NCBI RefSeq assembly: GCF_004565475.1
Contig: NZ_SRHX01000001.1
Coordinates: 372,001-436,000 of the forward strand
DNA from: Lonepinella koalarum
GTDB taxonomy: Bacteria > Pseudomonadota > Gammaproteobacteria > Enterobacterales > Pasteurellaceae
Length of the DNA: 64,000 bases
Reading direction: 5' to 3'
In this document: positions 21,724 through 56,312 of the stretch, piece after piece
Numbering within the stretch: position 1 is the stretch's first letter
Layout: each line of letters starts with the position of its first letter
Position numbers and translations under genes: made by a program
The notes under the pieces: model-generated
The model's input: the letters and a program-made list of their open reading frames with translations, nothing else
The model's database searches: none
What the model was told of the DNA's origin: nothing

Positions 21724-22242
<519 letters not shown>

Positions 22243-22271
22243 ATTATACAGCAAACCAAAAACAAGTGCAA
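22243..22271 (-). promoter_or_regulatory. S10 operon sigma70 promoter
   Basis: On the minus strand TTGCAC (complement of 22266-22271) and TATAAT (complement of 22243-22248) are separated by exactly 17 bases. An uptake core (22232-22240) sits right where transcription should start. Confidence 0.85.
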
Positions 22272-22420
22272 CATAATTCCAAGAAAGAGCCTTGACATTA
22301 GCAACGTTATGGCTAAACACACCCTATGATAGTGGACGATATTAACAGCAGTTAGAGATGATTGGGAAACTGGAAAATAAATAGATAGATTGGCTCAGTC
22401 AGCACCCCCTATTTTAAAGA
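22272..22420. other. Spacer between S10 promoter and the GntR gene
   Basis: About 150 bases with no ORF, repeat or terminator that I can support. The GntR-family gene ends at 22421 with only AT-rich sequence after it. Confidence 0.4.
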
Positions 22421-23122
22421 TTACTCAACATAATAATAAAGTATGTCAGTAAGGTAGGCATCATAATATTCAAATGCTTTCTCAACACCATCAATAATAC
22501 AAAAAGTGGTCGCCTTTACTCTCAATAATGGAACATTGCTATTTTTTATCTCAAGCAACGTATCAATATCTTCTGTTCCTTTAATTGCGGTAATATATTG
22601 TGTTTTTCTCACTATGTGAAGGTGATAAAAATGTTTTAACACGTCATATAGAGAGCGATCATTAAAATTAAAATATTCAAGCTTAGGAAAAAGTGACTCG
22701 GGTAAAACTGAAGTATTAATACAATAAGGTTGATTGTTGGCAAAATAAAGAGATTTTATAACATAAACAGATTCGTCTTCTGTAATACCAAGTAATTTTG
22801 CGTATGTTACACCTGCTTTTTCTTTACTAAAAGAAAGTTGTCTTTTGGTTGGAATCTTCCCTTGATTAAGAATAGCATCTGTAAAACTGTAAACATGTGA
22901 TAATTTGGTATTAGCAGATTCTTTTACGAAACAACCTTTTCGTCCAACTCTGTATAGAATACCTTCATTAACGAGATCATTGACTGCTTTTCTAACGGTA
23001 ATTCTACTTACCGAATAATATTCACACATTTCTTTTTCAGATGGCAGAACTTGGTTTTCAGTGTATTCGCGACGAGTGATTTTATTTTTAATATCGTTAA
23101 TAATTTGTTCATATTTCGTCAT
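22421..23122 (-). CDS. GntR-family regulator, HutC/UTRA type
   Basis: Transcriptional regulator of 233 residues. The N-terminal winged helix has the GntR signature LPSEKEMCEYYSVSRITVRKAV and the wing RVGRKGCFV (residues about 25-70). A UTRA effector domain follows (about 85-230), as in HutC, NagR, PhnF and E. coli YegW. A 10-bp palindrome overlaps its likely -10 region, suggesting autoregulation. It lies immediately downstream of the hydrolase-kinase-carrier genes on the same strand and is their probable regulator. The effector is unknown; UTRA domains usually bind small phosphorylated or sugar-like molecules. Confidence 0.88.
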   Translation of the reverse strand: MTKYEQIINDIKNKITRREYTENQVLPSEKEMCEYYSVSRITVRKAVNDLVNEGILYRVGRKGCFVKESANTKLSHVYSFTDAILNQGKIPTKRQLSFSKEKAGVTYAKLLGITEDESVYVIKSLYFANNQPYCINTSVLPESLFPKLEYFNFNDRSLYDVLKHFYHLHIVRKTQYITAIKGTEDIDTLLEIKNSNVPLLRVKATTFCIIDGVEKAFEYYDAYLTDILYYYVE

Positions 23123-23144
23123 AGTTTACCTTACCTTTTGGTTC

Positions 23145-23179
23145 ACTATATAGTACCAGTTGATATGATAAAGTGCTAT
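23145..23179 (-). promoter_or_regulatory. GntR gene promoter with palindromic operator candidate
   Basis: On the minus strand a TAGCAC-like -35 and TACTAT -10 are 17 bases apart. The perfect palindrome ACTATATAGT (23145-23154) overlaps the -10 box. AAGGTAAGG precedes the ATG. This is a candidate autoregulatory operator. Confidence 0.45.
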
Positions 23180-23265
23180 TGCTTTTTGATGTAATAGGAT
23201 GAACATGGAATGAAAAGCCACCAAATTAATGGTAGCGTTATAGTTATAGATGTATTGATAGGACT

Positions 23266-23961
23266 TTATGGCGTTTCTGTATGAATTTTTACCGAAATTT
23301 TACGCCAATTGAAATAACCATAGACTGAATTTATCATATTGATAACATTCATAATTATAATGAGAAAGGCTGAAGAATCGCCAGAAATAAAGATCATTAT
23401 CCACATTACAACAGCGAGAACATTGACGACAACCCACATAAGCCACTGTTCAGAATAGCGTTTCATATAGAGAAAACTGGCAATAACTGCAACAACTGTA
23501 GTTAAAGAATCCATAAAGGCAAACCCCCCACCTAGATATTCTAAAAATTCAGCATATCCCCATACGGCAATAACAGTGATAAGTATCATTTGAATAATAC
23601 CTGCTTTTGTCATCGTTCTGAATTTGACTTCGCCTTCGGATGTCATATTCTTTTTCCAAAGAATGATAGAAGCAATACTGATGGGAATACTATAAAGAAT
23701 GTTGTACATTATTTCACCATAAAGTGGAATGGTAAAACATTGTATTGAATACATTACGCTCCAAATGATAGCAAAATACAAACCTTCAATTTTTCCTTTT
23801 GCACCCAGTACCAAATTTAGAGAACTCGTTAATGTCATAATTAACATGAAAGTAGTTTCATTATCAAATACCCAAGCAATCGTTTGAAAAATGAGTACAA
23901 AAGCAAGCCAGGCTTTTTCTTTCAAGCTCCAATCATCAAAATAATGTTTAAAATTACTCAT
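23266..23961 (-). CDS. PnuC-family transporter (second copy, substrate unknown)
   Basis: Predicted inner-membrane facilitator of 231 residues with about seven hydrophobic segments. The PnuC family motif is visible near the C-terminus as YSEQWLMWVVVNV, matching the EQWALWILLNV of the first PnuC, followed by SVYGYFNWRK. The start at 23961 was chosen because GGAGG lies about 8 bases upstream; a frame from 23976 would overlap the kinase gene. The rest is clearly diverged from the first PnuC, so a different ligand is likely. PnuC-family members carry NR, thiamine, riboflavin or nucleosides and depend on intracellular phosphorylation to trap the ligand; the kinase next door fits that. Confidence 0.85.
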   Translation of the reverse strand: MSNFKHYFDDWSLKEKAWLAFVLIFQTIAWVFDNETTFMLIMTLTSSLNLVLGAKGKIEGLYFAIIWSVMYSIQCFTIPLYGEIMYNILYSIPISIASIILWKKNMTSEGEVKFRTMTKAGIIQMILITVIAVWGYAEFLEYLGGGFAFMDSLTTVVAVIASFLYMKRYSEQWLMWVVVNVLAVVMWIMIFISGDSSAFLIIIMNVINMINSVYGYFNWRKISVKIHTETP

Positions 23962-23965
23962 AGGT

Positions 23966-24862
23966 TTATCCTCCAAATTTTTGAATAAAGTTTTCTTTGG
24001 TCATTGTAGAGCCTTGTGTTTGAACAACTTCGGCGGCAATTTTATTAGCAAGTATAACAGCATCTTTAAGAGGATATCCTTGAGATAATCCAGCTAGAAT
24101 AGCACCGATATGACTATCTCCAGCACCAATCGTGTCAACAATTTTCACTTTAGGACTTGGAATTATTTCAAAAATTGTTCCATCAAAATAAGCTGCTCCT
24201 TTAGAACCTAATGTGACGATAATGAGATTCTGAGTCTGAGAATGTAAACACTGAACTGCCTGTTTTATGTCATTATGGTGAGTAAAATCCTTTAATTCTT
24301 TTTCGTTAATATGCAAAATAGGTTTTAAAGATAACAGCTGATTCATTACTTCTGCATTTATAACATTAATAACAGGACCGGGAGCGAAAAAGAGTTGTGT
24401 TTGGTTATTCGCAGATAACCATTCAGCAATAATTTTCCCATTATGATTAGTAAATTGATAACCATCCACATAGACTTGGGAATAATCATCAAGATTAATG
24501 TTTTCTAACCAGTCTTTTTTAAAATATCCTTCCGCACCAACGACAGTAATAAAGGTACGTTCTCCATTAGATTCAACAAGCGTTAAACAGTATCCGTTAT
24601 CTTTTTCTTCACTGTGGAACAGAATTGGATAACCATTTTGCAAAAGGGTTTCACGGATTAAATTTGCATATAAGCCCGTTCCGACGGGAACATAAAGATC
24701 ATGATGTGTGTCCAAATTTCTCATGGTACTTGCTACATTATATGCACATCCTCCTATGGTTGTTTTGGTTTCTATGCAGGTGATGTCTTCTCCTGATAAT
24801 GGAAGACGATCAATTAACATTATTTGATCGACAATAGCTGAACCAAGAATTAATGTCTTCAC
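23966..24862 (-). CDS. PfkB-family carbohydrate/nucleoside kinase (YegV-like)
   Basis: Predicted sugar or nucleoside kinase of 298 residues. It has the N-terminal ribokinase-like start LILGSAIVDQIMLIDRLPLSGED, the first PfkB signature GGCAYNVASTMRNL (about residues 38-51) and the second signature DTIGAGDSHIGAIL with catalytic Asp at D249. It overlaps the upstream hydrolase gene by four bases (ATGA) and the carrier starts five bases after it. E. coli yegV encodes a PfkB kinase in the same type of cluster. The substrate is not known; ribose, a nucleoside or a ribosyl conjugate are the reasonable options. Confidence 0.88.
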   Translation of the reverse strand: MKTLILGSAIVDQIMLIDRLPLSGEDITCIETKTTIGGCAYNVASTMRNLDTHHDLYVPVGTGLYANLIRETLLQNGYPILFHSEEKDNGYCLTLVESNGERTFITVVGAEGYFKKDWLENINLDDYSQVYVDGYQFTNHNGKIIAEWLSANNQTQLFFAPGPVINVINAEVMNQLLSLKPILHINEKELKDFTHHNDIKQAVQCLHSQTQNLIIVTLGSKGAAYFDGTIFEIIPSPKVKIVDTIGAGDSHIGAILAGLSQGYPLKDAVILANKIAAEVVQTQGSTMTKENFIQKFGG

Positions 24863-25857
24863 TTTAGTTTCTCCCGTCCTTTAATTAAAATATCAATATA
24901 GGTATTAAAATTGATATTATTTTGTTTGTGTAACATTTCAATATAATGAGAGTGAATGACGGATACGCCAGTAAAAGCACCACAAATTGCAGTCGCCATC
25001 GCACCAATAGTATCCGTATCTCCGCCCATATTGGCACAAAGAAAAGCAGAATGATTAGGATTTCTGGCATAATATGCCACGGAAATGGCAGCAGGAACAG
25101 ATTCTATAATTTGTACCCCAGTGCCGACAATATCATAGATTTTTTGTAAAAAAATGCTATCTTGTTCCTTATATTTCCTAGCTATTTCAATACCAATTTT
25201 TACTCGTTCATTTAATCGTGGACTAAAAGTTTCAGCTCCTTTAGCATAGCCGATAGGCTCAATTGCTAGAATATCATCCACAACTTTTTCAAAATCATCA
25301 TTAACAATTGCAGAGGCAACGCCAACGGCAATCATTGCTGCTCCTGCTATTGCTATATCACTTGAATGAGTAGCACAACTAAGATCATAAACGTAGTCAA
25401 CTAGTTTTTCTTTTTGTTCGGGATAAAACATTGCTCCTATTGGACCTATTCGCATAGCTGAACCATTTGAAAGAGCCGAGTTAGTTACTTTAGATGGATT
25501 TTTACCTTCTCGGAAATCTGTGAGGGCCAATTTTGTTGTTGGTCCTAATATATTATTTTGAAAAGCATTTTCTCGCTCAGACCATTCTAGAAGGCGTTGA
25601 GCGACGTCTTTAGTATTAGGGATATAATTGGTTGACGCAAGAGAATCAAGTAGTACCAGAGCTTGTCCAGTATCATCAGTAAATTGCCCCTTGATATAAT
25701 TAGTCGCCACCTCATTTTCGGCGGGACCATCAAGCATTTCTGTAATCAATCCCCCAAAGAATTCTTCTATGTATTTTTTGCTCCATAATTCAGAGGGCAT
25801 TCCCATTGCATCTCCAAGAGCTTGTCCATAAAGTGCACCTGCAATTCTATTTTTCAT
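24859..25857 (-). CDS. yegU: ADP-ribosylglycohydrolase-family protein (YegU-like)
   Basis: Predicted binuclear-metal N-glycosidase of the DraG/ARH fold, 332 residues. The N-terminus GALYGQALGDAMGMPSELW, the metal ligands FTDDTGQ (T60-T63) and the C-terminal metal motif GGDTDTIGAMATAI (D280, D282) are intact, so the enzyme should be active. Length and sequence resemble E. coli YegU (334), as I recall it. The start at 25857 was chosen from the YegU-like MKNRIAGALYG beginning and a GGGG site; the frame is open ten codons upstream. It is first in a coupled operon with the PfkB kinase and PnuC-type carrier. The true substrate may be a small ribosylated compound and not ADP-ribosylated protein. Confidence 0.86.
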   Translation of the reverse strand: MKNRIAGALYGQALGDAMGMPSELWSKKYIEEFFGGLITEMLDGPAENEVATNYIKGQFTDDTGQALVLLDSLASTNYIPNTKDVAQRLLEWSERENAFQNNILGPTTKLALTDFREGKNPSKVTNSALSNGSAMRIGPIGAMFYPEQKEKLVDYVYDLSCATHSSDIAIAGAAMIAVGVASAIVNDDFEKVVDDILAIEPIGYAKGAETFSPRLNERVKIGIEIARKYKEQDSIFLQKIYDIVGTGVQIIESVPAAISVAYYARNPNHSAFLCANMGGDTDTIGAMATAICGAFTGVSVIHSHYIEMLHKQNNINFNTYIDILIKGREKLK

Positions 25858-25879
25858 ATTTACCCCAGAATAACAAAAA

Positions 25880-25936
25880 GACATCACAAAATGTAATGTC
25901 TAAAGCGATAATACTCTGTGAATTTATAGAATGCAA
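25880..25936 (-). promoter_or_regulatory. Promoter and operator candidate of the yegU-like operon
   Basis: On the minus strand TTGCAT (complement of 25931-25936) and TATTAT (complement of 25908-25913) are 17 bases apart. Just downstream, at 25880-25900, is an imperfect palindrome GACATcAC-N5-GTaATGTC, placed where a repressor would block the start site. Confidence 0.6.
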
Positions 25937-26155
25937 GTTAAATATTGTGTGATTTATGATTTAAATGATGAATCTGTACAAAATTATTTGAAACATTCCG
26001 AAGCTATTAGTACAGCGGTAAATCATTTGATGTTGATACGTTGATTTTAAATGGAACGTTTGAACAACAACGTACCAACTATCCGATTTTAACTGAAAAA
26101 GTCACCAATCACTCAACATAGGACGAATCACCATTACCCTCGCCAATGCCACACG
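25931..26155 (+). pseudogene. Possible degraded coding remnant, unidentified
   Basis: A short reading frame from ATG 25931 (MQVKYCVIYDLNDESVQNYL...) stops after 37 codons at 26042-26044. An overlapping frame then continues (DVDTLILNGTFEQQRTNYPIL...) to a stop near 26122, and a third piece (RITITLANATRY) follows. The pieces look like protein but are too broken to identify. The region also contains the yegU operon promoter on the other strand. Chance cannot be excluded. Confidence 0.25.
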
Positions 26156-26173
26156 CTATTGCTGACCTTTCAT

Positions 26174-26201
26174 TTTTCCCCACAATTCTTTGTGGGGAAA
26201 A
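26174..26201 (-). terminator. Intrinsic terminator after melB
   Basis: Perfect stem TTTTCCCCACAA/TTGTGGGGAAAA with a 4-nt loop; on the minus strand the A/T-rich arm ends in AAAATG after the T-rich arm. It lies 12 bases after the melB stop. Confidence 0.8.
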
Positions 26202-26212
26202 TCTCCCTAAAC

Positions 26213-27583
26213 TTATTCAAACTTCCGATATTTATCCAACAAGCGAATATTCACTTTTGCCAGTAAGTCGCCGTGTAGGCGGTAGTAGCGGAAATAAACG
26301 AAGAGTTTGACAGCGAAGAACAAAATTGGCAAGCCGATCATGATGATTTTCATGTAGAAAATGGTGCTTTCACTTTGCTCTACATTTGGCACATAATGAA
26401 TCACCGTGAGTAATACGCCGATGAGGAATGCAGAAACTGCCGATCCTGCTTTGACCACCATGGTTTGTACGGCGTAAGCAATGGATTCGGAGCGGATGCC
26501 GAGTTTATATTCACCGTAATCCACCGTATCTGCCACCATAATCACTTGCAATGTCCAGAACAAGGCAGTGCCGATGTTCATTAAAATCCCTGCAAAGATA
26601 ATCAGCCAAATACTATGATGATCAGACATCCCTGTGTAAGCCAACACTAAGCAAGATAAAATTGGCGAAATAGACGCTGTTGCCCACAAAATACGGCGTG
26701 AGAACAGTTTTGCCAATTTTGAGAACAGTACGATGACCACTAAATTGGCTACACCCGCATAAGACATATAATACGGGAAGAGCTCTTTGTCACCCACCAC
26801 ATAGGTGAAGTAGTAAATGGCGAAAGATGTGATGATATTGCTGGCGATATTGTAGCAAAGCGCCATGACCAATAGGCTGGAAAGCTGGTCATTGCGGGGA
26901 ATCAGGGAAATCAGCTCTTTCAGTGGAATGCGTTTTCCGCCTTGATTTTCTTCAAGATTGTCAGAAGAATATTTTTCTTTGACGTTCACCAGCGTGATAA
27001 TGGTGGATGCCACAAAAAACGCAATAATTACCCACACGAAAGCACGGAAACCTGCCCCTTGATCTTCGCCGCCCACTTTTGCCACAAACCATAAACATAC
27101 GCCAGCGGTGACAAAGTTAGCGAGGCTGGCGAAAAAGCGTGGGTAAGGCACGAGTTGTTCCCGTTCCCGTTGGTCAAGGGTGAGGGTTGGGGTGAGTGAC
27201 CAAAAGGGAATGTCCATTAAGGTGTAGGTCATGCCCCATAAAATATAGGTGACGGCAATGTAAACCACTAACGCCGTGCCGCTGAATTTGTCGGCATAAA
27301 ACAGGGAAAGCAAGGCAATAGAATTTAAAATCGTGCCAATTAAAATCCATGGCTTGAATTTGCCCCAGCGAGTGCGGGTGTTGTTCACAATCCAGCCCAT
27401 AATCGGGTCGTTGACCGCATCCCACACACGGGCGATCATAAAAATCGTCCCCACTACGGCGGCAGATGCCCCCACTACATCGGTGTAATAGTACATTAAA
27501 TACATATACACAATGCCAATGGCAAAATCTTTGCCGTATGCCCCCAGTCCAAAACTGAGTTTGGTTTTCATGGATAAACTCAT
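26213..27583 (-). CDS. melB: Melibiose:cation symporter MelB (GPH family)
   Basis: Inner-membrane sugar:cation symporter with about 12 membrane segments, 456 residues (E. coli MelB 473). The cation-site aspartates are visible at the same positions as in E. coli MelB: D19 in GKD, and D55 and D59 in WDAVNDP. The loop WGKFKPWIL and later [13 protein letters not shown] (helix X-XI loop) are family signatures. AAGGAG lies 6 bases before the first ATG. It is transcribed after melA but separated from it by a terminator-like hairpin. Melibiose is the expected substrate; other galactosides, including lactose, are possible. Confidence 0.9.
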
Positions 27584-27610
27584 GGTTTACTCCTTGTGAT
27601 TAATGATGGA

Positions 27611-27638
27611 AAAAAGCATGGTAAGGGTTTACCATGCT
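27611..27638 (-). terminator. Terminator-like hairpin between melA and melB
   Basis: Perfect 10-bp stem AGCATGGTAA/TTACCATGCT with a 4-nt loop. On the minus strand it is followed by TTTTTTCC, a full intrinsic terminator inside the melA-melB transcript. It should make melB expression lower than melA. Confidence 0.8.
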
Positions 27639-27650
27639 TCGTGAGTGGTG

Positions 27651-29003
27651 TTATTGATTGATCCAGTTTGGTAACCAGTCTTTATGTGCCACCAATAATT
27701 CATCGACCAAGGCATAAATTTCTTCTAAGCCAAGGGCGGCGGCGGTGTGCGGATCAAGCATTGCCGCATGATAAATACGATCCCGATTTTCCGTGATCAA
27801 GGCTTCCGTGGTTAAACGTTGCACATTAATATTGGTTTGCATCAACGCCGCCAAATGGTTTGGAATTTTGCCTACATGAGTTGGCTGAATGCCGTTGGCA
27901 TCCACTAAACAAGCCACTTCCACACAGCAATCGGACGGCAAGTTTTCAATTAACTGATCGTTTTTCACATTGCCGTAAATCACGCTTGGTTGTCCCGTCC
28001 AAATGGAGTTGATAATGCTACTGGCGTATTCACGGGATTCTGCCACACAAATTTTTTCCGCTTGTTTAAATTCTTGCAAGTCGCTTTTCCATTTTTCCAC
28101 TTGCTCTACGCAACGTTTTGGATATTCATCGAGTGGCACTTTGTAACGCTCAATTAAATCAGGGCGATTCGGCTTGATGAAATACGGCGTGTATTCGGCA
28201 AAATGTTCGGAAGATTCGGTGACGAAATAGCCCAGTTTTTTCAACATTTCATAACGCACAATATTGTTACAACGCAGATTATTATCCATGCGTGGTTTTG
28301 GTGCGCGACCGCTGGCATAAGCCTCGTGTAAATCAGGGTAAATGCTTTGATAACTGCCATCTGGCAAGCGTTTTTCAAGGCTTAAATAAAACGCCATGTG
28401 GTTGATTCCTGCACAAATATAACGCAAATCATGGTGATCCAAATCTAAATCGTGAGCCAATTCTTCCGCTGTGCCTTGCACCGAATGGCAAAGCCCCACT
28501 TGTTTAATTTGTGGATATTTTTCAAACATCGCCCAGCTGTTCATCGCCATTGGGTTCACATAGTTCAACATGGTGGCATTCGGGCAAACTTCCAACATAT
28601 CATCACAGATTTTCCATAAATGCGGAATTGTCCGCAAGGCACGCATAATGCCACCCACGCCCAAGGTGTCGGCAATGGTTTGCTCCAAGCCATATTTTTT
28701 GCACACTTCAAAATCCGTCACGGTGCAAGGCTCATAACCGCCAATTTGGAACGCCACCACCACAAAATCCGCATCACGCAAGGCTTCTTTTTGATCGGTG
28801 TAACTTTCAATCGTGCCGTTCGCCCCTTGAGATTTCATTAATTTTTCAATCACAAAATGGGATTCTTCCAACCGCACAGGGTCAATATCCATTAAGGCAA
28901 TGCGAGCTTCTTTCAACGCAGGTTTATGAAACACATCGCCTAAAATATTTTTCACAAACACGGTGGAACCCGCCCCAATAAAGGTAATTTTTGGACTACT
29001 CAT
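27651..29003 (-). CDS. melA: Alpha-galactosidase MelA (GH4)
   Basis: Cytoplasmic NAD- and Mn-dependent hydrolase of melibiose. The 450 residues (E. coli 451) carry the Rossmann start KITFIGAGSTVFVKN, the GH4 signature with NYVNPMAMNSW, and the Mn-binding CHS motif (GLCHSVQG) with a later His in GINHMAF. First gene of the minus-strand mel transcript, divergent from melR. Codon choice (many TTG leucines, GCC/GCG alanines) is richer in G/C than in neighbouring genes. Confidence 0.95.
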   Translation of the reverse strand: MSSPKITFIGAGSTVFVKNILGDVFHKPALKEARIALMDIDPVRLEESHFVIEKLMKSQGANGTIESYTDQKEALRDADFVVVAFQIGGYEPCTVTDFEVCKKYGLEQTIADTLGVGGIMRALRTIPHLWKICDDMLEVCPNATMLNYVNPMAMNSWAMFEKYPQIKQVGLCHSVQGTAEELAHDLDLDHHDLRYICAGINHMAFYLSLEKRLPDGSYQSIYPDLHEAYASGRAPKPRMDNNLRCNNIVRYEMLKKLGYFVTESSEHFAEYTPYFIKPNRPDLIERYKVPLDEYPKRCVEQVEKWKSDLQEFKQAEKICVAESREYASSIINSIWTGQPSVIYGNVKNDQLIENLPSDCCVEVACLVDANGIQPTHVGKIPNHLAALMQTNINVQRLTTEALITENRDRIYHAAMLDPHTAAALGLEEIYALVDELLVAHKDWLPNWINQ

Positions 29004-29186
29004 AGCAAACTCCTGATAATAAATAAATGGATTTAAATTTGGCTTGAGTATGCCTGCTAAATCGGTTAAATTCTTCCCATAATTTCAATAAAAATTCCCA
29101 AAAATTCAGATCGAATGACTTGGGTCACAGATTTTTTGGTAAAAGTGCGGTGTTTTTTACCGCGGTTTTTTAAAAGGAACGAAAGA
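29004..29186. promoter_or_regulatory. melA-melR divergent control region with CRP-like site
   Basis: A CRP-like site AATGA-CTTGGG-TCACA lies at 29114-29129. Repeated TTCCCA-containing blocks (ATTCTTCCCATAATTTC near 29070 and AAAATTCCCAAAAATTC near 29092) are candidate MelR sites. An uptake core lies at 29143-29151. The E. coli melR-melA region is likewise controlled by CRP and MelR. Confidence 0.5.
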
Positions 29187-50476: not shown

Positions 50477-50605
50477 TGTAACTTTACAAGATGATCTGGG
50501 CTTGATAAAATAGCTTGAATTTAATTAATTCATCTCGAGATTGCACTAAGCAATCTTAGGTTAATGAATATTTGTAAGTGTTCAACCACACAATCAGGAG
50601 TAATT

Positions 50606-51745
50606 ATGTCCGCACAAGCCATTCTCGTGCTTGCTGACGGTAGTGTTTTTCACGGCACATCCATCGGTGCTGAAGGTCACACTATCGGCGAAGTCGTTTT
50701 TAACACTGCCATGACAGGCTATCAAGAAATTTTAACTGACCCTTCTTATTTTAAACAAATCGTCACCTTAACTTATCCCCACATTGGCAACACAGGTTGC
50801 AACGTTGAAGATTTTGAAAGTCATCAAGTATTTGCGGCGGGCTTAATTATCCGTGATTTACCCTTAATTCACAGCAATTTCCGCTCCAATCAAAGCCTTG
50901 ATCAATATTTAAAAGCCCATAATGTGGTGGCAATTGCCGATATTGACACTCGCCGTTTAACCCGTATTTTGCGTGACAAAGGCGCACAAGCAGGCTGCAT
51001 TTTAACAGGCGAAAATTTAACCGAAGCGGACGAGAAAAAAGCCTTGGAATTAGCCTTAAGTTTCGGCTCAATGGCAGGCAAAGATTTAGCCAAAGAAGTC
51101 ACCAGTGCCGAAACCTACCCTTGGACACAAGGCGAGTGGCAACTGGGCAAAAGCTATATTGAAGCGGAAAACCCCGAATTTAACATTGTCGCCTATGATT
51201 TCGGCACCAAACGCAATATTTTACGCATGCTCGCCGAACGGGGCTGTAATATCACGGTCGTTCCTGCTCAAACGCCTGCCGAAGAGGTGCTTGCCTTAAA
51301 TCCAGACGGCATTTTCTTATCCAACGGACCGGGCGACCCTGAACCTTGCGATTATGCGATTGCCGCCATTCAAACATTCTTGAAAAGCAAAAAACCGCTG
51401 TTTGGCATTTGTTTAGGACATCAACTGTTAGGCTTGGCAGCAGGCGGAAAAACCAAAAAAATGCCATTCGGACACCACGGGGCAAACCACCCAGTGCAAG
51501 ATTTAGACAGTGGCAAAGTGTTAATCACCAGCCAAAATCACGGCTTTGAAGTGGATGAAGAAAGTCTTCCTGCTAATGTGCGAGTGACTCATCGTTCGCT
51601 GTTTGATAATTCCGTACAAGGCATTGAACTCACAGACCTTGCTGCATTCTCATTCCAAGGACACCCAGAAGCCAGCCCCGGTCCGAATGATGTGGCGTAT
51701 TTGTTTGATAAATTTATTGCCAATTTGAGAGCAGCAAAAGCGTAA
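50606..51745 (+). CDS. carA: Carbamoyl-phosphate synthase small subunit CarA
   Basis: Glutamine amidotransferase subunit delivering ammonia to CarB, for arginine and pyrimidine synthesis. The 379 residues have an N-terminal CarA domain and a class I GATase domain with the nucleophile Cys in [10 protein letters not shown] and the His/Glu pair in [10 protein letters not shown]. The ATG at 50606 has CAGGAG upstream. First gene of an apparent operon carA-fic-lysE type-carB. It uses more TTG/GCC/CCG codons than most genes in the window. Confidence 0.97.
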
Positions 51746-51754
51746 GAAAAGCCA

Positions 51755-52411
51755 ATGCAAAATAAATTTCATCTCACTTTGCAAGAAAATCGTTTTTTGG
51801 CGAAGAAAAATATTGTGGAAGTGATCCACAGTATTTCACGGCTGGAAAACGTCAACACCACCTTTCCGCAAACGCAAACCATTGTCAGCGGAATGAGTGT
51901 GAGCGGTGTTTCCACCGATGATGTGCAGGTGATTTTAAATTTAAAAAATGCGTGGCAGTTTATTTTAAAAGCCGATTCGCCTTTTAATTTGGCTTTTGCT
52001 TGTAAAATCAATGGCTTTGTGGCGTATAATGAATCACTGGCGTGGGGCGAATTACGCTCGGGCAATGTGGGGATTAGTGGCGTGGCTTATGTGCCTGATA
52101 TTCCCCAACGGCAAAGCGTGGAACAAACTTTTGCACAAATTATCAATCAGCCCATTTCTGCCACGGAAAAAGCGTTAAAATTAATGTATTACCTGATGCG
52201 AAACCAGCTATTTTGGGACGGCAATAAACGCACAGCGATTATTTGTGCTAATTATTTGCTAATTCAAGCTGGGGCTGGTGTATTAAATATTAACGAGCAA
52301 CAATTAGAACAATGGCACGAACTATTGTCTCAATTTTATGAAAGTGGCGAGGATGCCGAGATTGTTGAGTGGACATATCAGCATTGTTTGTATGGGATAG
52401 GAAATGATTAA
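51755..52411 (+). CDS. Fic/DOC-fold protein with altered catalytic motif
   Basis: A Fic-domain protein of 218 residues. The family loop appears as QLFWDGNKRTA (151-161): the Doc/Fic pattern HxFxDGNKR is kept except that the catalytic His position is Gln151. The N-terminal helix that in class II Fic proteins carries (S/T)xxxE(G/N) reads QTIVSG (41-46), so the inhibitory Glu also appears replaced. It follows carA after nine bases and overlaps the next gene by eight. Fic proteins usually AMPylate or phosphorylate protein hydroxyls; this one may be inactive, or may have a different chemistry. No antitoxin partner is seen. Confidence 0.75.
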   Translation: MQNKFHLTLQENRFLAKKNIVEVIHSISRLENVNTTFPQTQTIVSGMSVSGVSTDDVQVILNLKNAWQFILKADSPFNLAFACKINGFVAYNESLAWGELRSGNVGISGVAYVPDIPQRQSVEQTFAQIINQPISATEKALKLMYYLMRNQLFWDGNKRTAIICANYLLIQAGAGVLNINEQQLEQWHELLSQFYESGEDAEIVEWTYQHCLYGIGND

Positions 52412-53039
52412 TGTATTTACCACAGGCTTTTTAATCAGTGCTGGATTATTAGTTGCTATCGGTCCACAAAATACGTATGTATTACGCCAAGGAATTAAAA
52501 AAGAAGCGATTTTTACGGTAAGTACAGTCTGTTTTTTATGCGATACGCTACTGATGACGATAGGTGTTTTTGGATTGGGCAAAGTGATTAATGATAACCA
52601 TATAGCACTTATTCTATTGACCTTAGTTGGATTTATTTTTCTAATTTGGTATGGCTACAATGCTTTAGTGAGTGCTTGGAAAGGGAATGATTCTTTAATT
52701 ATCAATTCAAAAGAACAAGCTGAAGTCAATAAACTAAAAATCATATCCACAACAGTGGCAATGAGCTTATTAAATCCAAATGTTTGGCTGGACACTGTGG
52801 CTATCGTAGGCAGTATTTCTTTATCTTTTGCAGAAAATATGAGAATTTACTATTTGGTGGGTGCTTTAACCGCTTCTTTTGTTTGGTTTTACAGCATTGG
52901 GTATCTTAGTTCGGGACTATCCAATATATTATCGAAAAAGAAAGTATGGCAGGTATTAGATCTTTGCATTGGGATTTATATGCTTTATATGGCATTTATG
53001 TTACTTGCTTCTGGTTTTTCAAATGGGATATTTTCTTAA
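52404..53039 (+). CDS. argO: LysE/ArgO-family amino acid exporter
   Basis: Inner-membrane exporter of 211 residues with six hydrophobic segments. The LysE family signature GLLVAIGPQNTYVLRQGI is in helix 1, and SLLNPNVWLDTVAIVGS in the central region carries the conserved Asn-Pro-x-x-x-x-Asp. Substrate is probably arginine or lysine; the place inside a carAB operon behind ARG boxes fits arginine. AGGAAATG within the fic tail is its ribosome binding site. The gene is AT-richer than the flanking carA and carB, suggesting a separate origin. Confidence 0.82.
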   Translation: MINVFTTGFLISAGLLVAIGPQNTYVLRQGIKKEAIFTVSTVCFLCDTLLMTIGVFGLGKVINDNHIALILLTLVGFIFLIWYGYNALVSAWKGNDSLIINSKEQAEVNKLKIISTTVAMSLLNPNVWLDTVAIVGSISLSFAENMRIYYLVGALTASFVWFYSIGYLSSGLSNILSKKKVWQVLDLCIGIYMLYMAFMLLASGFSNGIFS

Positions 53040-53081: not shown

Positions 53082-56000
53082 ATGCCAAAACGTAACGACA
53101 TAAACACAATATTAATTATCGGGGCAGGTCCGATTGTGATCGGTCAAGCCTGTGAATTTGACTATTCGGGGGCGCAGGCTTGTAAGGCTTTGCGGGAAGA
53201 AGGCTATAAAGTGGTGTTGGTGAACTCCAACCCTGCCACCATTATGACCGATCCGAATATGGCGGATGTCACCTACATTGAGCCAATTCAATGGCAAACC
53301 GTGGAAAAAATCATTGAAAAAGAACGCCCTGATGCGATTTTACCGACCATGGGCGGACAAACGGCGTTGAACTGTGCGTTAGATTTGTCTAAACATGGCG
53401 TGTTGAAAAAATACAATGTGGAGTTGATCGGAGCGACCGAAGATGCCATTGATAAAGCGGAAGATCGTGGACGGTTTAAAGAAGCCATGGCGAAAATTGG
53501 GCTAAATACGCCAAAATCTTTTGTGTGCCATACTTTCGATGAGGCGTGGAAAGCACAGGAAGAAGTGGGCTTTCCAACCTTGATTCGTCCGTCATTTACC
53601 ATGGGCGGCTCAGGCGGCGGCATTGCTTATAACCGTGATGAATTTCAAGCCATTTGTGAACGGGGTTTTGATGCCTCACCGACCCACGAGCTGTTGATTG
53701 AGCAGTCGGTGTTGGGTTGGAAAGAGTACGAAATGGAAGTGGTGCGGGATAAGGCGGACAACTGCATTATCGTCTGTTCCATTGAAAACTTTGACCCAAT
53801 GGGCGTGCATACAGGTGACAGTATCACCGTTGCTCCTGCTCAAACCTTGACCGATAAAGAATACCAAATTATGCGAAATGCCAGTCTTGCGGTGTTGCGT
53901 GAAATTGGGGTGGATACGGGCGGTTCAAACGTGCAATTTGCCATCAACCCTGAAAATGGCGAGATGATCGTGATTGAAATGAATCCACGGGTCAGTCGTT
54001 CTTCGGCGTTGGCTTCCAAAGCCACAGGTTTCCCGATTGCTAAAGTGGCAGCCAAATTGGCGGTGGGCTATACGCTTAACGAACTTCGCAACGACATTAC
54101 AGGCGGTTTAATCCCTGCCTCTTTTGAGCCGTCCATTGACTATGTGGTGACCAAAGTCCCACGTTTTGCCTTTGAAAAATTCCCCCAAGCGGACGACCGT
54201 TTAACCACGCAAATGAAATCCGTGGGCGAAGTGATGGCAATGGGTCGCACGTTCCAAGAAAGTTTACAAAAAGCCTTGCGTGGCTTAGAAACAGGGATTT
54301 GTGGTTTCAATTTGCTTTCCGAAGAACCTGAAAAAATCCGTAGCGAATTGGGTAACCCTGGTCCGAATCGGATTTTATATGTGGCAGACGCATTCGGGGC
54401 TGGTTTCAGTTTGGAAGAAGTCCATCATTATTCCAAAATTGATCCGTGGTTCTTGATTCAAATTCAAGATTTAGTGCAAGAAGAATTAGCGTTGGAAAAA
54501 CGTACGCTAGATGAATTGGATTACACTGAACTCCGCCGTTTAAAACGCAAAGGCTTTTCCGATAAACGGATTGGTCAGCTTACCAAGGCTGGCGAAACCG
54601 CGGTGCGAAATAAACGAAATTCTTTGAATCTTCACCCTGTTTATAAACGAGTGGACACCTGTGCGGGCGAATTTAAATCCGACACCGCTTATCTTTATTC
54701 CACCTATGAAGAAGAATGCGAAAGCCGTCCAACGGATCGCAAAAAAATCATGATTTTAGGTGGTGGTCCGAACCGTATCGGACAAGGGATTGAATTTGAT
54801 TATTGCTGCGTTCATGCCGCCCTTGCCTTGCGTGAAAGCGGTTTTGAAACCATTATGGTCAACTGCAACCCTGAAACGGTGTCTACGGATTTTGATACGT
54901 CCGACCGTTTATATTTTGAGCCGTTGACTCTTGAAGATGTGCTAGAAATTATCCACGTGGAAAATCCGTACGGCGTGATTGTGCATTACGGCGGTCAAAC
55001 CCCATTGAAACTCGCCAATGCCTTGCACGACAATGGCGTAAATATTATTGGCACGTCCGCCGACAGCATCGATGCCGCCGAAGACCGTGAACGTTTCCAA
55101 AAAATCTTGCAAGATTTAGGACTAAAACAACCGAATAACCGCACGGCTCGCAATGCAGTTGAAGCGGTGAAATTGGCGGAAGAAGTGGGCTATCCTTTGG
55201 TGGTGCGTCCGTCTTATGTATTGGGCGGTCGGGCGATGCAGATTGTGTACAACGTGGACGAACTCAATAAATATATGCGTGAAGCGGTACAAGTGTCCGA
55301 AGACAGCCCGATTTTGCTGGATCATTTCTTAAACAACGCCATTGAAGTGGACGTAGATTGTATTTGTGACGGTAAGGAAGTCATCATTGGTGGCATTATG
55401 CAACATATCGAACAAGCAGGCATTCACAGTGGCGACTCCGCTTGCTCCTTGCCAGCCTATTCTTTAAGTGAAGCCGTGCAAGATGAAATCCGCCGTCAAA
55501 CCGTGGCAATGGCTCACGCCTTAAATGTAGTGGGCTTAATGAACGTGCAGTTTGCCGTGCAAAATGACGTGATTTATGTGTTGGAAGTCAACCCACGCGC
55601 CAGCCGTACTGTGCCATTTGTCAGTAAAGCCACAGGGCGATCTTTGGCGAAAATCGCCGCCCGAGTAATGGCAGGAATTTCTCTAGCAGAACAGGGGATA
55701 GCTGGTGAAGTGATACCTGATTATTACTCTGTCAAAGAAGCCGTGTTCCCGTTTATTAAATTCCCTGGGGTAGACACGATTTTAGGGCCTGAAATGCGTT
55801 CCACAGGCGAAGTCATGGGCGTTGGAAAGACCTTTTCCGAAGCCTTTTTAAAAGCACAGCTGGGTGCAGGCGAGCGAGTACCAAAGACCGGCAAAGTCTT
55901 TGTTTCCGTGGACAACAACGATAAAGAACGCTTATTGCCCGTGGCTCGCAGCTTACAAGAACAAGGCTACGGCTTATGTGCCACCATAGGAACGGCGAAA

Positions 56001-56312
56001 TTCTTGAAAGAAAACGGCATTTTCGCCCAAATCGTAAACAAAGTTCGTGAAGGTCGCCCGCATATTGTGGATGCCATTAAAAACGGTGAAATTGCCATGG
56101 TCATTAACACTGTTGGTAGTACACCTGAAAGCGTAACAGATAGTCATTCTATTCGCCAAAGTGCATTGCAACAGAAAGTGTTTTTACAAACAACGCTTTC
56201 AGGAGCAGAAGCCTTAGTGGAAGGTGTGAAAAGTATTGATAAACTTGATGTGTATTCGATACAGGAGTTGCATCAAAGTCTAAATAAGGAATATATATCT
56301 AAAAATAAGTAA
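53082..56312 (+). CDS. carB: Carbamoyl-phosphate synthase large subunit CarB
   Basis: Two homologous ATP-grasp halves: the first (about 1-400) makes carbamate with ammonia from CarA, the second (about 555-935) makes carbamoyl phosphate; the C-terminal MGS-like domain (about 940-1073) binds allosteric effectors. The 1076 residues match E. coli (1073). Signatures are [20 protein letters not shown]-type starts in each half, [14 protein letters not shown] and [15 protein letters not shown], and paired [18 protein letters not shown] / [18 protein letters not shown]. Much of the gene is TTG/GCC-rich while the last ~600 bases are AT-richer. Confidence 0.97.

What the first reader, a model, noticed from the sequence alone, without database searches (positions are those of the whole stretch)
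51755..52411. Fic-fold protein in the car operon with His to Gln in the active-site loop
The loop QLFWDGNKRTA fits HxFxDGNKR except at the catalytic histidine (Gln151). The N-terminal inhibitory motif is also changed (QTIVSG in place of (S/T)xxxE(G/N)). Loss of both fits a protein that has given up AMPylation, or one that does another reaction or acts as a binding module. Placement within carA-carB, in frame with tight spacing, suggests a link to carbamoyl phosphate, arginine or pyrimidine metabolism.
Basis: partly seen in the sequence, partly recalled or inferred. Interest (0 to 1): 0.6.

Follow-up and report, generated by a model that had tools for sequence, protein, structure and literature searches.

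The report
His-to-Gln Fic protein, carA-carB cargo
This gene belongs to a large branch of Fic proteins, noticed in 2015 but apparently untested, in which the catalytic histidine is glutamine, and it sits between two metabolic genes most likely because that gap is a recurrent landing site for accessory, partly defence-like genes.

Summary
The ORF (51755-52411, 218 aa) and its loop QLFWDGNKR with Gln151 are real; other details need correction. QTIVSG is not the inhibitory motif: a family profile aligns Glu31 (ISRLEN) with human FICD's gatekeeper Glu, and Glu31 is invariant in a 67-row alignment. Gln is not a local loss: among homologues found without loop bait, 55 of 59 that align at this position have Gln (2 His, the weakest hits; 1 Arg; 1 Leu). 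Matches occur in 544 of 72,556 plasmid records. Khater and Mohanty (2015) already described such a clade (D2, Qx[FY]x[DE][GV]NKR). The predicted fold (pLDDT 96.9) matches FICD over its full length; Mg/phosphate-loop residues are conserved and dN/dS is low, so this is a maintained protein. Near relatives sit at carB in two further families, but the carA-carB gap exceeds 600 bp in 31 of 72 related genomes (window included) with varied cargo, partly restriction- or defence-like, and other near relatives lie elsewhere. A metabolic link is not supported. Likely mechanism, inferred: a nucleotide- or AMPylated-ligand-binding Fic that works, if it catalyses, through Glu31 rather than His.

The parts
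51755..52411 (+). Q-type Fic gene, 218 aa (P0001): class-II-like Fic fold, His replaced by Gln151, inhibitory-helix Glu31 retained
51824..51889 (+). codons for residues 24-45: inhibitory-helix equivalent IHSISRLENVNTTFPQTQTIVS with Glu31 and Thr36
   Evidence: profile alignment to FICD; conservation
52205..52240 (+). codons for residues 151-162: active-site loop QLFWDGNKRTAI (Q151, D155, N157, K158, R159; second Arg absent)
50564..51745 (+). carA, left border of the cargo gap
52404..53039 (+). LysE-type exporter gene, second cargo gene in the same gap, overlaps the fic stop by 8 nt
53082..56312 (+). carB, right border of the cargo gap

Best explanation
Shown: the protein belongs to a large, purifying-selected, widely distributed clade of single-domain Fic proteins with Gln at the catalytic-His position, a Doc-like NKR loop and an FICD-like N-terminal helix with a conserved Glu. 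Its gene lies in the carA-carB gap, which holds different accessory genes in many related genomes. Inferred: it came there as horizontally transferred cargo. It cannot use the canonical His general-base mechanism of AMPylation. The conserved Mg-Asp and phosphate loop still bind a nucleotide or a phosphorylated/AMPylated ligand, and Glu31, whose FICD counterpart activates water, is the working residue: either slow hydrolysis of a ligand with a good leaving group, or stable recognition of an AMPylated or nucleotide-bound partner (as FICD H363A traps its substrate). It acts as a mostly solitary module without a fixed partner gene.
For: Gln in 55 of 59 homologues found without loop bait (2 His at E about 2e-5, 1 Arg at 1e-9, 1 Leu at 3e-14). 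E31, T36, Q151, F153, N157, K158, R159, Y195 invariant in 67 of 67 rows and D155 in 66 of 67 (most of these rows were fetched with a Gln-containing bait; in the 10 rows that were not, the same eight are invariant and D155 is 9 of 10). FICD is the top sequence-profile match (E 7.5e-23) and top fold match (4u04_A Z 24.1, 200 residues, 2.1 A), model pLDDT 96.9. dN/dS 0.05-0.17 in 9 of 11 gene pairs, 2 saturated (values, ratios). The Q clade is one side of a branch with SH-aLRT 98 (quick tree). 544 of 72,556 plasmid records match, 482 over at least 80% of the protein. Gap survey, cargo. FICD deAMPylation requires Glu234 and His363, and H363A traps the substrate (PMC8373988, passages).
Against: No activity, ligand or phenotype of any member was found. 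Without the second Arg the FICD-type contact to that Arg cannot form (Arg role recalled and PMC4454073 section 6), so Glu31 may be structural. FICD deAMPylation also needs the His, so a Glu-only hydrolase has no precedent that I know. Natural variants with Leu or Arg in place of Gln exist in distant relatives, so Gln is not strictly required there. 9 of 147 loci have a His-type Fic nearby on the same strand, so some members may not be solitary.
Confidence: 0.55

Rival explanations
1. Pseudo-enzyme: the Fic fold is used only as a protein-binding module (flap and groove), and Gln merely fills the pocket.
For: Catalytic His absent; second Arg mostly absent; a Leu and an Arg variant in distant relatives. 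Bartonella BepC is a Fic protein whose reported effect runs through recruitment of GEF-H1 (PMC7842960, title and abstract start in the listing).
Against: Gln and the Mg/phosphate residues D155, N157, K158, R159 are invariant or nearly so in the clade, unlike what drift in a dead pocket would give.
Confidence: 0.27
2. Doc-like kinase or AMP-transferase toxin of a plasmid-addiction kind that still works with Gln, as Khater and Mohanty allow (they suggest the clade might not be dead).
For: Doc-like NKR loop; DOC_P1 hit E 1.2e-5, below its cut-off (25.5 of 38.65 bits); frequent on plasmids, in one case beside HicA/HicB and YafQ modules.
Against: No conserved antitoxin-like neighbour: of 837 neighbours in 105 loci no cluster is shared by more than 13 loci, and the commonest is ABC ATPases. 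In the window no small partner gene is seen beside it.
Confidence: 0.15
3. Metabolic partner of carbamoyl-phosphate synthetase.
For: Tight spacing to carA. The subclade recurs at carB in three families: window, Alysiella, three intact and two remnant copies in Moraxellaceae.
Against: The gap holds unrelated cargo in many genomes; subclade members lie at a metK-like and, as a remnant, at iscS/iscU-like genes; decay to remnants in 2 of the 5 Moraxellaceae genomes with it in the gap; none of the Bacillota loci fetched holds carA or carB within its flanks.
Confidence: 0.03

Closest known systems
Fic/Doc clade D2 of Khater and Mohanty 2015 (PMC4454073; section 6 read in full)
   Same: Loop consensus Qx[FY]x[DE][GV]NKR, single domain, bacterial; QLFWDGNKR fits.
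   Different: They list 45 sequences as a Doc subclade; here profile and fold are FICD-like with an N-terminal helix and conserved Glu. Their tree was not re-run.
Human FICD/HYPE, class II Fic (PDB 4u04, 6i7 series, 7b7z)
   Same: Fold over the whole model (Z 24.1), gatekeeper Glu, Mg-Asp, Asn and Arg of the loop.
   Different: His is Gln, second loop Gly is Lys, second loop Arg is lost, no TPR domain; 18% identity.
Doc toxin (PDB 3dd7)
   Same: NKR loop without the second Arg (PMC4454073 section 6 for Doc).
   Different: Doc keeps His and lacks the N-terminal helices (PMC2686095 passages); profile match weak and local (E 0.024, profile positions 136-178).
phrog_11900 (PHROGs, unknown function)
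   Same: Covers residues 10-207, E 3.2e-34.
   Different: A family of phage proteins; around the window copy (47-58 kb) the ORFs read by eye are not phage-like.
Minimal mobile elements of Neisseria (PMC3898611, passages)
   Same: Different whole-gene cassettes between the same two conserved genes.
   Different: The passages seen do not name carA-carB as such a site; that comparison rests on the gap survey here.

Membership tests
Fic/Doc superfamily (PF02661) | Pfam profile over its cut-off and Fic fold | tested here: met
   44.9 bits vs cut-off 24; fold matches
Clade D2 (Q-Fic) | Loop Qx[FY]x[DE][GV]NKR | tested here: met
   QLFWDGNKR
Clade D2 (Q-Fic) | Single-domain protein | tested here: met
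   218 aa; model aligned over 1-218 to the FICD Fic domain
Clade D2 (Q-Fic) | Placement inside the published D2 branch | not tested
   Their sequences were not held; only the motif was compared
Class II Fic AMP-transferase | Catalytic His in HxFx[DE]GN[GK]R | tested here: not met
   Gln151
Class II Fic AMP-transferase | N-terminal inhibitory motif (S/T)xxxE(G/N) | tested here: inconclusive
   Glu31-Asn32 present; Ile27 in place of Ser/Thr
Class II Fic AMP-transferase | Second Arg of GNGRxxR | tested here: not met
   I162; Arg in 4 of 67 rows
FICD-type deAMPylase | Gatekeeper Glu plus catalytic His | tested here: not met
   Glu31 present, His absent (requirement: PMC8373988 passages)
Doc-type toxin-antitoxin module | His in the loop | tested here: not met
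   Gln151
Doc-type toxin-antitoxin module | Adjacent Phd-like antitoxin gene | tested here: not met
   Neighbours are carA and a LysE exporter; no shared partner in 105 loci
AMPylation, kinase or hydrolase activity | Measured activity | not testable with these tools
   Needs protein chemistry

The most novel reading that the evidence does not exclude
Q-Fics are a distinct functional class: the conserved Glu of the inhibitory helix, normally a brake, is the working residue, and the proteins hydrolyse or read AMPylated or nucleotide-bound targets. They would serve as mobile antagonists or sensors of AMPylation in defence-gene neighbourhoods, in some loci in an operon with a His-type Fic enzyme.
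Probability: 0.2. Interest if true: 0.75.

Novelty: new member of a known kind. Interest (0 to 1): 0.42.

Why it matters
A Fic branch with Gln in place of the catalytic His was pointed out in 2015 (PMC4454073); my searches of the held library listed no experiment on it. That its gatekeeper Glu is conserved and its fold FICD-like makes the question 'enzyme, reader or dead fold?' directly testable with point substitutions at E31, Q151 and K158. The carA-carB gap as a cargo site, occupied in Pasteurellaceae, Moraxellaceae and next to carB in Alysiella, also explains why odd genes, several of them defence-like, turn up inside a core metabolic operon.

Tried and rejected
Rejected: a local or lineage-specific loss of His (Gln is the rule in the clade). 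Rejected: QTIVSG as the inhibitory motif. Rejected: a fixed partner gene (837 neighbours, 105 loci; L090, L111 and L122 dropped because my ORF caller did not place the gene; L105, L130, L134 and L136 were not given to it). Inconclusive: genome-level co-occurrence with other Fics, because 120 of 140 genomes of the family have a Fic match anyway. Inconclusive: promoter and terminator scan around car, no more sites than in shuffles. Uptake signal: AAGTGCGGT occurs 28 times in the window (0.27 expected) but not between 50318 and 56851; a longer stretch without it exists elsewhere (22241-29142), so nothing is made of it. Weak PADLOC matches of this protein (PDC-S23, PDC-S05, E 9e-6 to 1.4e-3, best stretches within residues 121-172) were not used as proof of a defence role. 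Paper searches for Q-Fic work: only PMC4454073, of those I opened, describes the clade; most others were seen as listings. For the carA-carB gap the listings showed nothing on Pasteurellaceae. I recall, without having seen it here, an older paper on a variable carA-carB intergenic region in Neisseria.

Bias to note: most rows of the 67-row alignment came from collection scans whose bait contained the Gln, so their Gln is partly by selection. The count of 55 of 59 uses loci from whole-protein searches only; L176-L178 (genomes reached through bait loci) are left out, L019 is merged with L012 and L020 with L013, and L032 and L211 carry near-identical proteins. 15 further loci did not align at residue 151 in that call: 10 of His type (L015-L018, L022, L039-L041, L189, L190), L021 and L024 (Gln, NKRTSR loops), and three remnants (L188, L216, L217). 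The tree is a quick one with SH-aLRT only; L208, L001, L009 and L204h are long branches, and six near-duplicate or odd His rows were left out before building. The 9 of 147 loci are not independent: some loci are the same gene fetched twice, and flank lengths differ.

Full report
What is there. The window has carA (50564-51745), a 218-aa ORF (51755-52411), a LysE-type exporter (52404-53039) and carB (53082-56312), all on the + strand. The ORF starts 9 nt after carA and its stop overlaps the exporter start by 8 nt; carB follows 42 nt after the exporter. The 218-aa protein matches Pfam Fic (E 2.1e-11, 44.9 bits against a cut-off of 24). The assembly has four more stretches matching Pfam Fic, three of them over the cut-off; those three have His loops, and the fourth is a gene broken by a frame change.

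The loop and the inhibitory motif. A profile of 67 rows finds FICD as the best solved relative (E 7.5e-23). In that alignment Gln151 faces the FICD His, and Glu31 (ISRLEN) faces the Glu of VAIEGN, which I take to be the gatekeeper Glu234 (numbering recalled). Glu31 is invariant in the 67 rows; the residue four before it, Ser/Thr in the class II motif, is Ile here. The loop has Lys in place of the second Gly and lacks the second Arg (Ile162; Arg in 4 of 67). The loop is thus Doc-like in NKR and the body FICD-like.

Is Gln the rule? In homologues reached by whole-protein searches, 59 distinct alignments reach residue 151: 55 Gln, 2 His (the weakest, E about 2e-5), 1 Arg (E about 1e-9) and 1 Leu (L218, E 3e-14). 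Of those with E <= 1e-10, 49 of 50 have Gln. Ten His-type Fic loci that the searches also returned at weak E-values did not align in that call. A quick tree of 60 rows, built without the columns of residues 151, 158 and 162, puts 42 Gln rows on one side of a branch with SH-aLRT 98; a second Gln group (CNKRT and NKRTSR loops, one with Arg) falls on the side of the 11 His rows. This fits transfer from Bacillota (inference).

Spread and selection. 544 of 72,556 plasmid records match at E 1e-3, 482 over at least 80% of the protein, led by Enterococcus, Acinetobacter (there fused to a zeta toxin) and Lactiplantibacillus; 4 of 50,697 phage records; 18 of 140 genomes of the window's own family and 14 of 83 of the Alysiella family, both including weak matches to ordinary Fics; 9 of 249 of the Moraxella family and 8 of 398 Bacillota genomes, both at E 1e-10 and including the genome that served as centre. 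dN/dS is 0.05-0.17 in 9 of 11 pairs; 2 were saturated, and dS exceeds 1 in four of the nine. phrog_11900 (unknown function) covers it.

Fold. AlphaFold2 from 67 rows gives mean pLDDT 96.9, pTM 0.93. Foldseek and VIA-align put FICD first over the whole model (4u04_A Z 24.1, 200 residues, 2.1 A, 18% identity). A shared fold does not show function.

Why in the car operon. In the window's family 73 genomes have carB and 74 carA at the thresholds used; 72 have both on one contig and strand (G028 dropped, split contigs; G052 carA only). The gap is 300 bp or less in 35, 301-600 in 6 and over 600 in 31, the window included. I fetched 38 gaps and read 34, among them all 30 others over 600 bp. They hold genes for PhzF, NYN/LOTUS, YhcG nuclease, DJ-1, FRG, a PLD/NgoFVII-like domain, LysE and others (10 cargo proteins scanned, 8 with a Pfam match); one or more gaps hold no clear gene (for example L138). 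By eye no Fic is among these ORFs, and the P0001 matches lie at other places. The same-genus genome in the set has neither carA nor carB at those thresholds. In the Moraxella family the nearest relatives (71-72%) lie in the carA-carB gap of three genomes, with Mrr and TIR genes (G741), an Mrr gene (G763), or AAA and PIN genes (G180); two more genomes keep only remnants of the gene there, one of them with an Mrr gene. In Alysiella it lies upstream of carB with one small ORF between, and a different LysE gene precedes it; carA is not nearby. Two other members of this subclade are elsewhere: beside a metK-like gene in G193 and as a remnant near iscS/iscU-like genes in G263 (names by eye). PADLOC models hit 4 of 10 scanned gap proteins strongly (FRG, YhcG, Mrr, the AAA ATPase), 1 weakly (PLD) and 5 not at all. 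The position is therefore best read as a shared cargo site in the manner of the minimal mobile elements described for Neisseria (PMC3898611, passages), not as a metabolic link. That cargo travels by natural transformation is an inference; the window's many AAGTGCGGT repeats (28 against 0.27 expected) fit the uptake signal of Haemophilus-type Pasteurellaceae (recalled), and the name of the host family rests on that and on gene content.

Partners. Among 105 loci with 837 neighbours no cluster is shared by more than 13 loci, and the commonest is ABC ATPases. 9 of 147 loci with a Q loop have a His-type Fic in the fetched flank, all on the same strand; chance was not computed and the loci are not fully independent. 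On several lactobacillus plasmids repA and a small ORF precede it. In Acinetobacter a related domain follows a zeta-toxin domain in one protein.

Mechanism. FICD hydrolyses AMP from its target with Glu234 placing a water and His363 as likely general acid; H363A traps the AMPylated target (PMC8373988, passages). A protein that has kept the Glu, the Mg-Asp and the anion nest, with Gln for His, would be expected to bind such ligands and to be poor at canonical AMPylation. That it hydrolyses or reads them is inference. A Fic with a degenerate loop can still be toxic: C. fetus Fic2, which keeps His, is (PMC5651007, passages).

Known or new. The clade was described in 2015 as D2, 45 sequences, with the remark that it may not be catalytically dead (PMC4454073, section 6). 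I file the finding as a new member of a known, apparently untested kind.

Noticed in passing
L032 and L211 (Acinetobacter phage-labelled contig and plasmid), 500-aa ORF: A Q-type Fic domain follows a zeta-toxin domain in one protein, annotated as zeta toxin family protein on several Acinetobacter plasmids.
   Followed up: partly
L021, L024, L014, L033, L192-L194: A second group of Fic proteins also has Gln at the His position, with CNKRT or NKRTSR loops that keep the second Arg; L194 has Arg instead of Gln.
   Followed up: partly
L083, L114, L132, L204, L061, L078, L097, L108, L186: Q-type Fic genes with a His-type Fic gene nearby on the same strand (9 of 147 loci).
   Followed up: partly
   Followed up: no
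L167 (G156 carA-carB gap): A carA-end-plus-gap segment appears twice in this assembly, with a partial carB and N letters between; duplication or misassembly.
   Followed up: no
L005 (own genome C20): A broken fic-like gene: the loop HAFREGNGR lies in another frame than the first part.
   Followed up: no
   Followed up: partly
L008: A Q-type Fic gene lies among cas-like ORFs (by eye).
   Followed up: no
L013/L020 (G021): A Q-type Fic gene, in two frames, sits between rnf/rsx-like genes (by eye), another insertion in a core operon.
   Followed up: no
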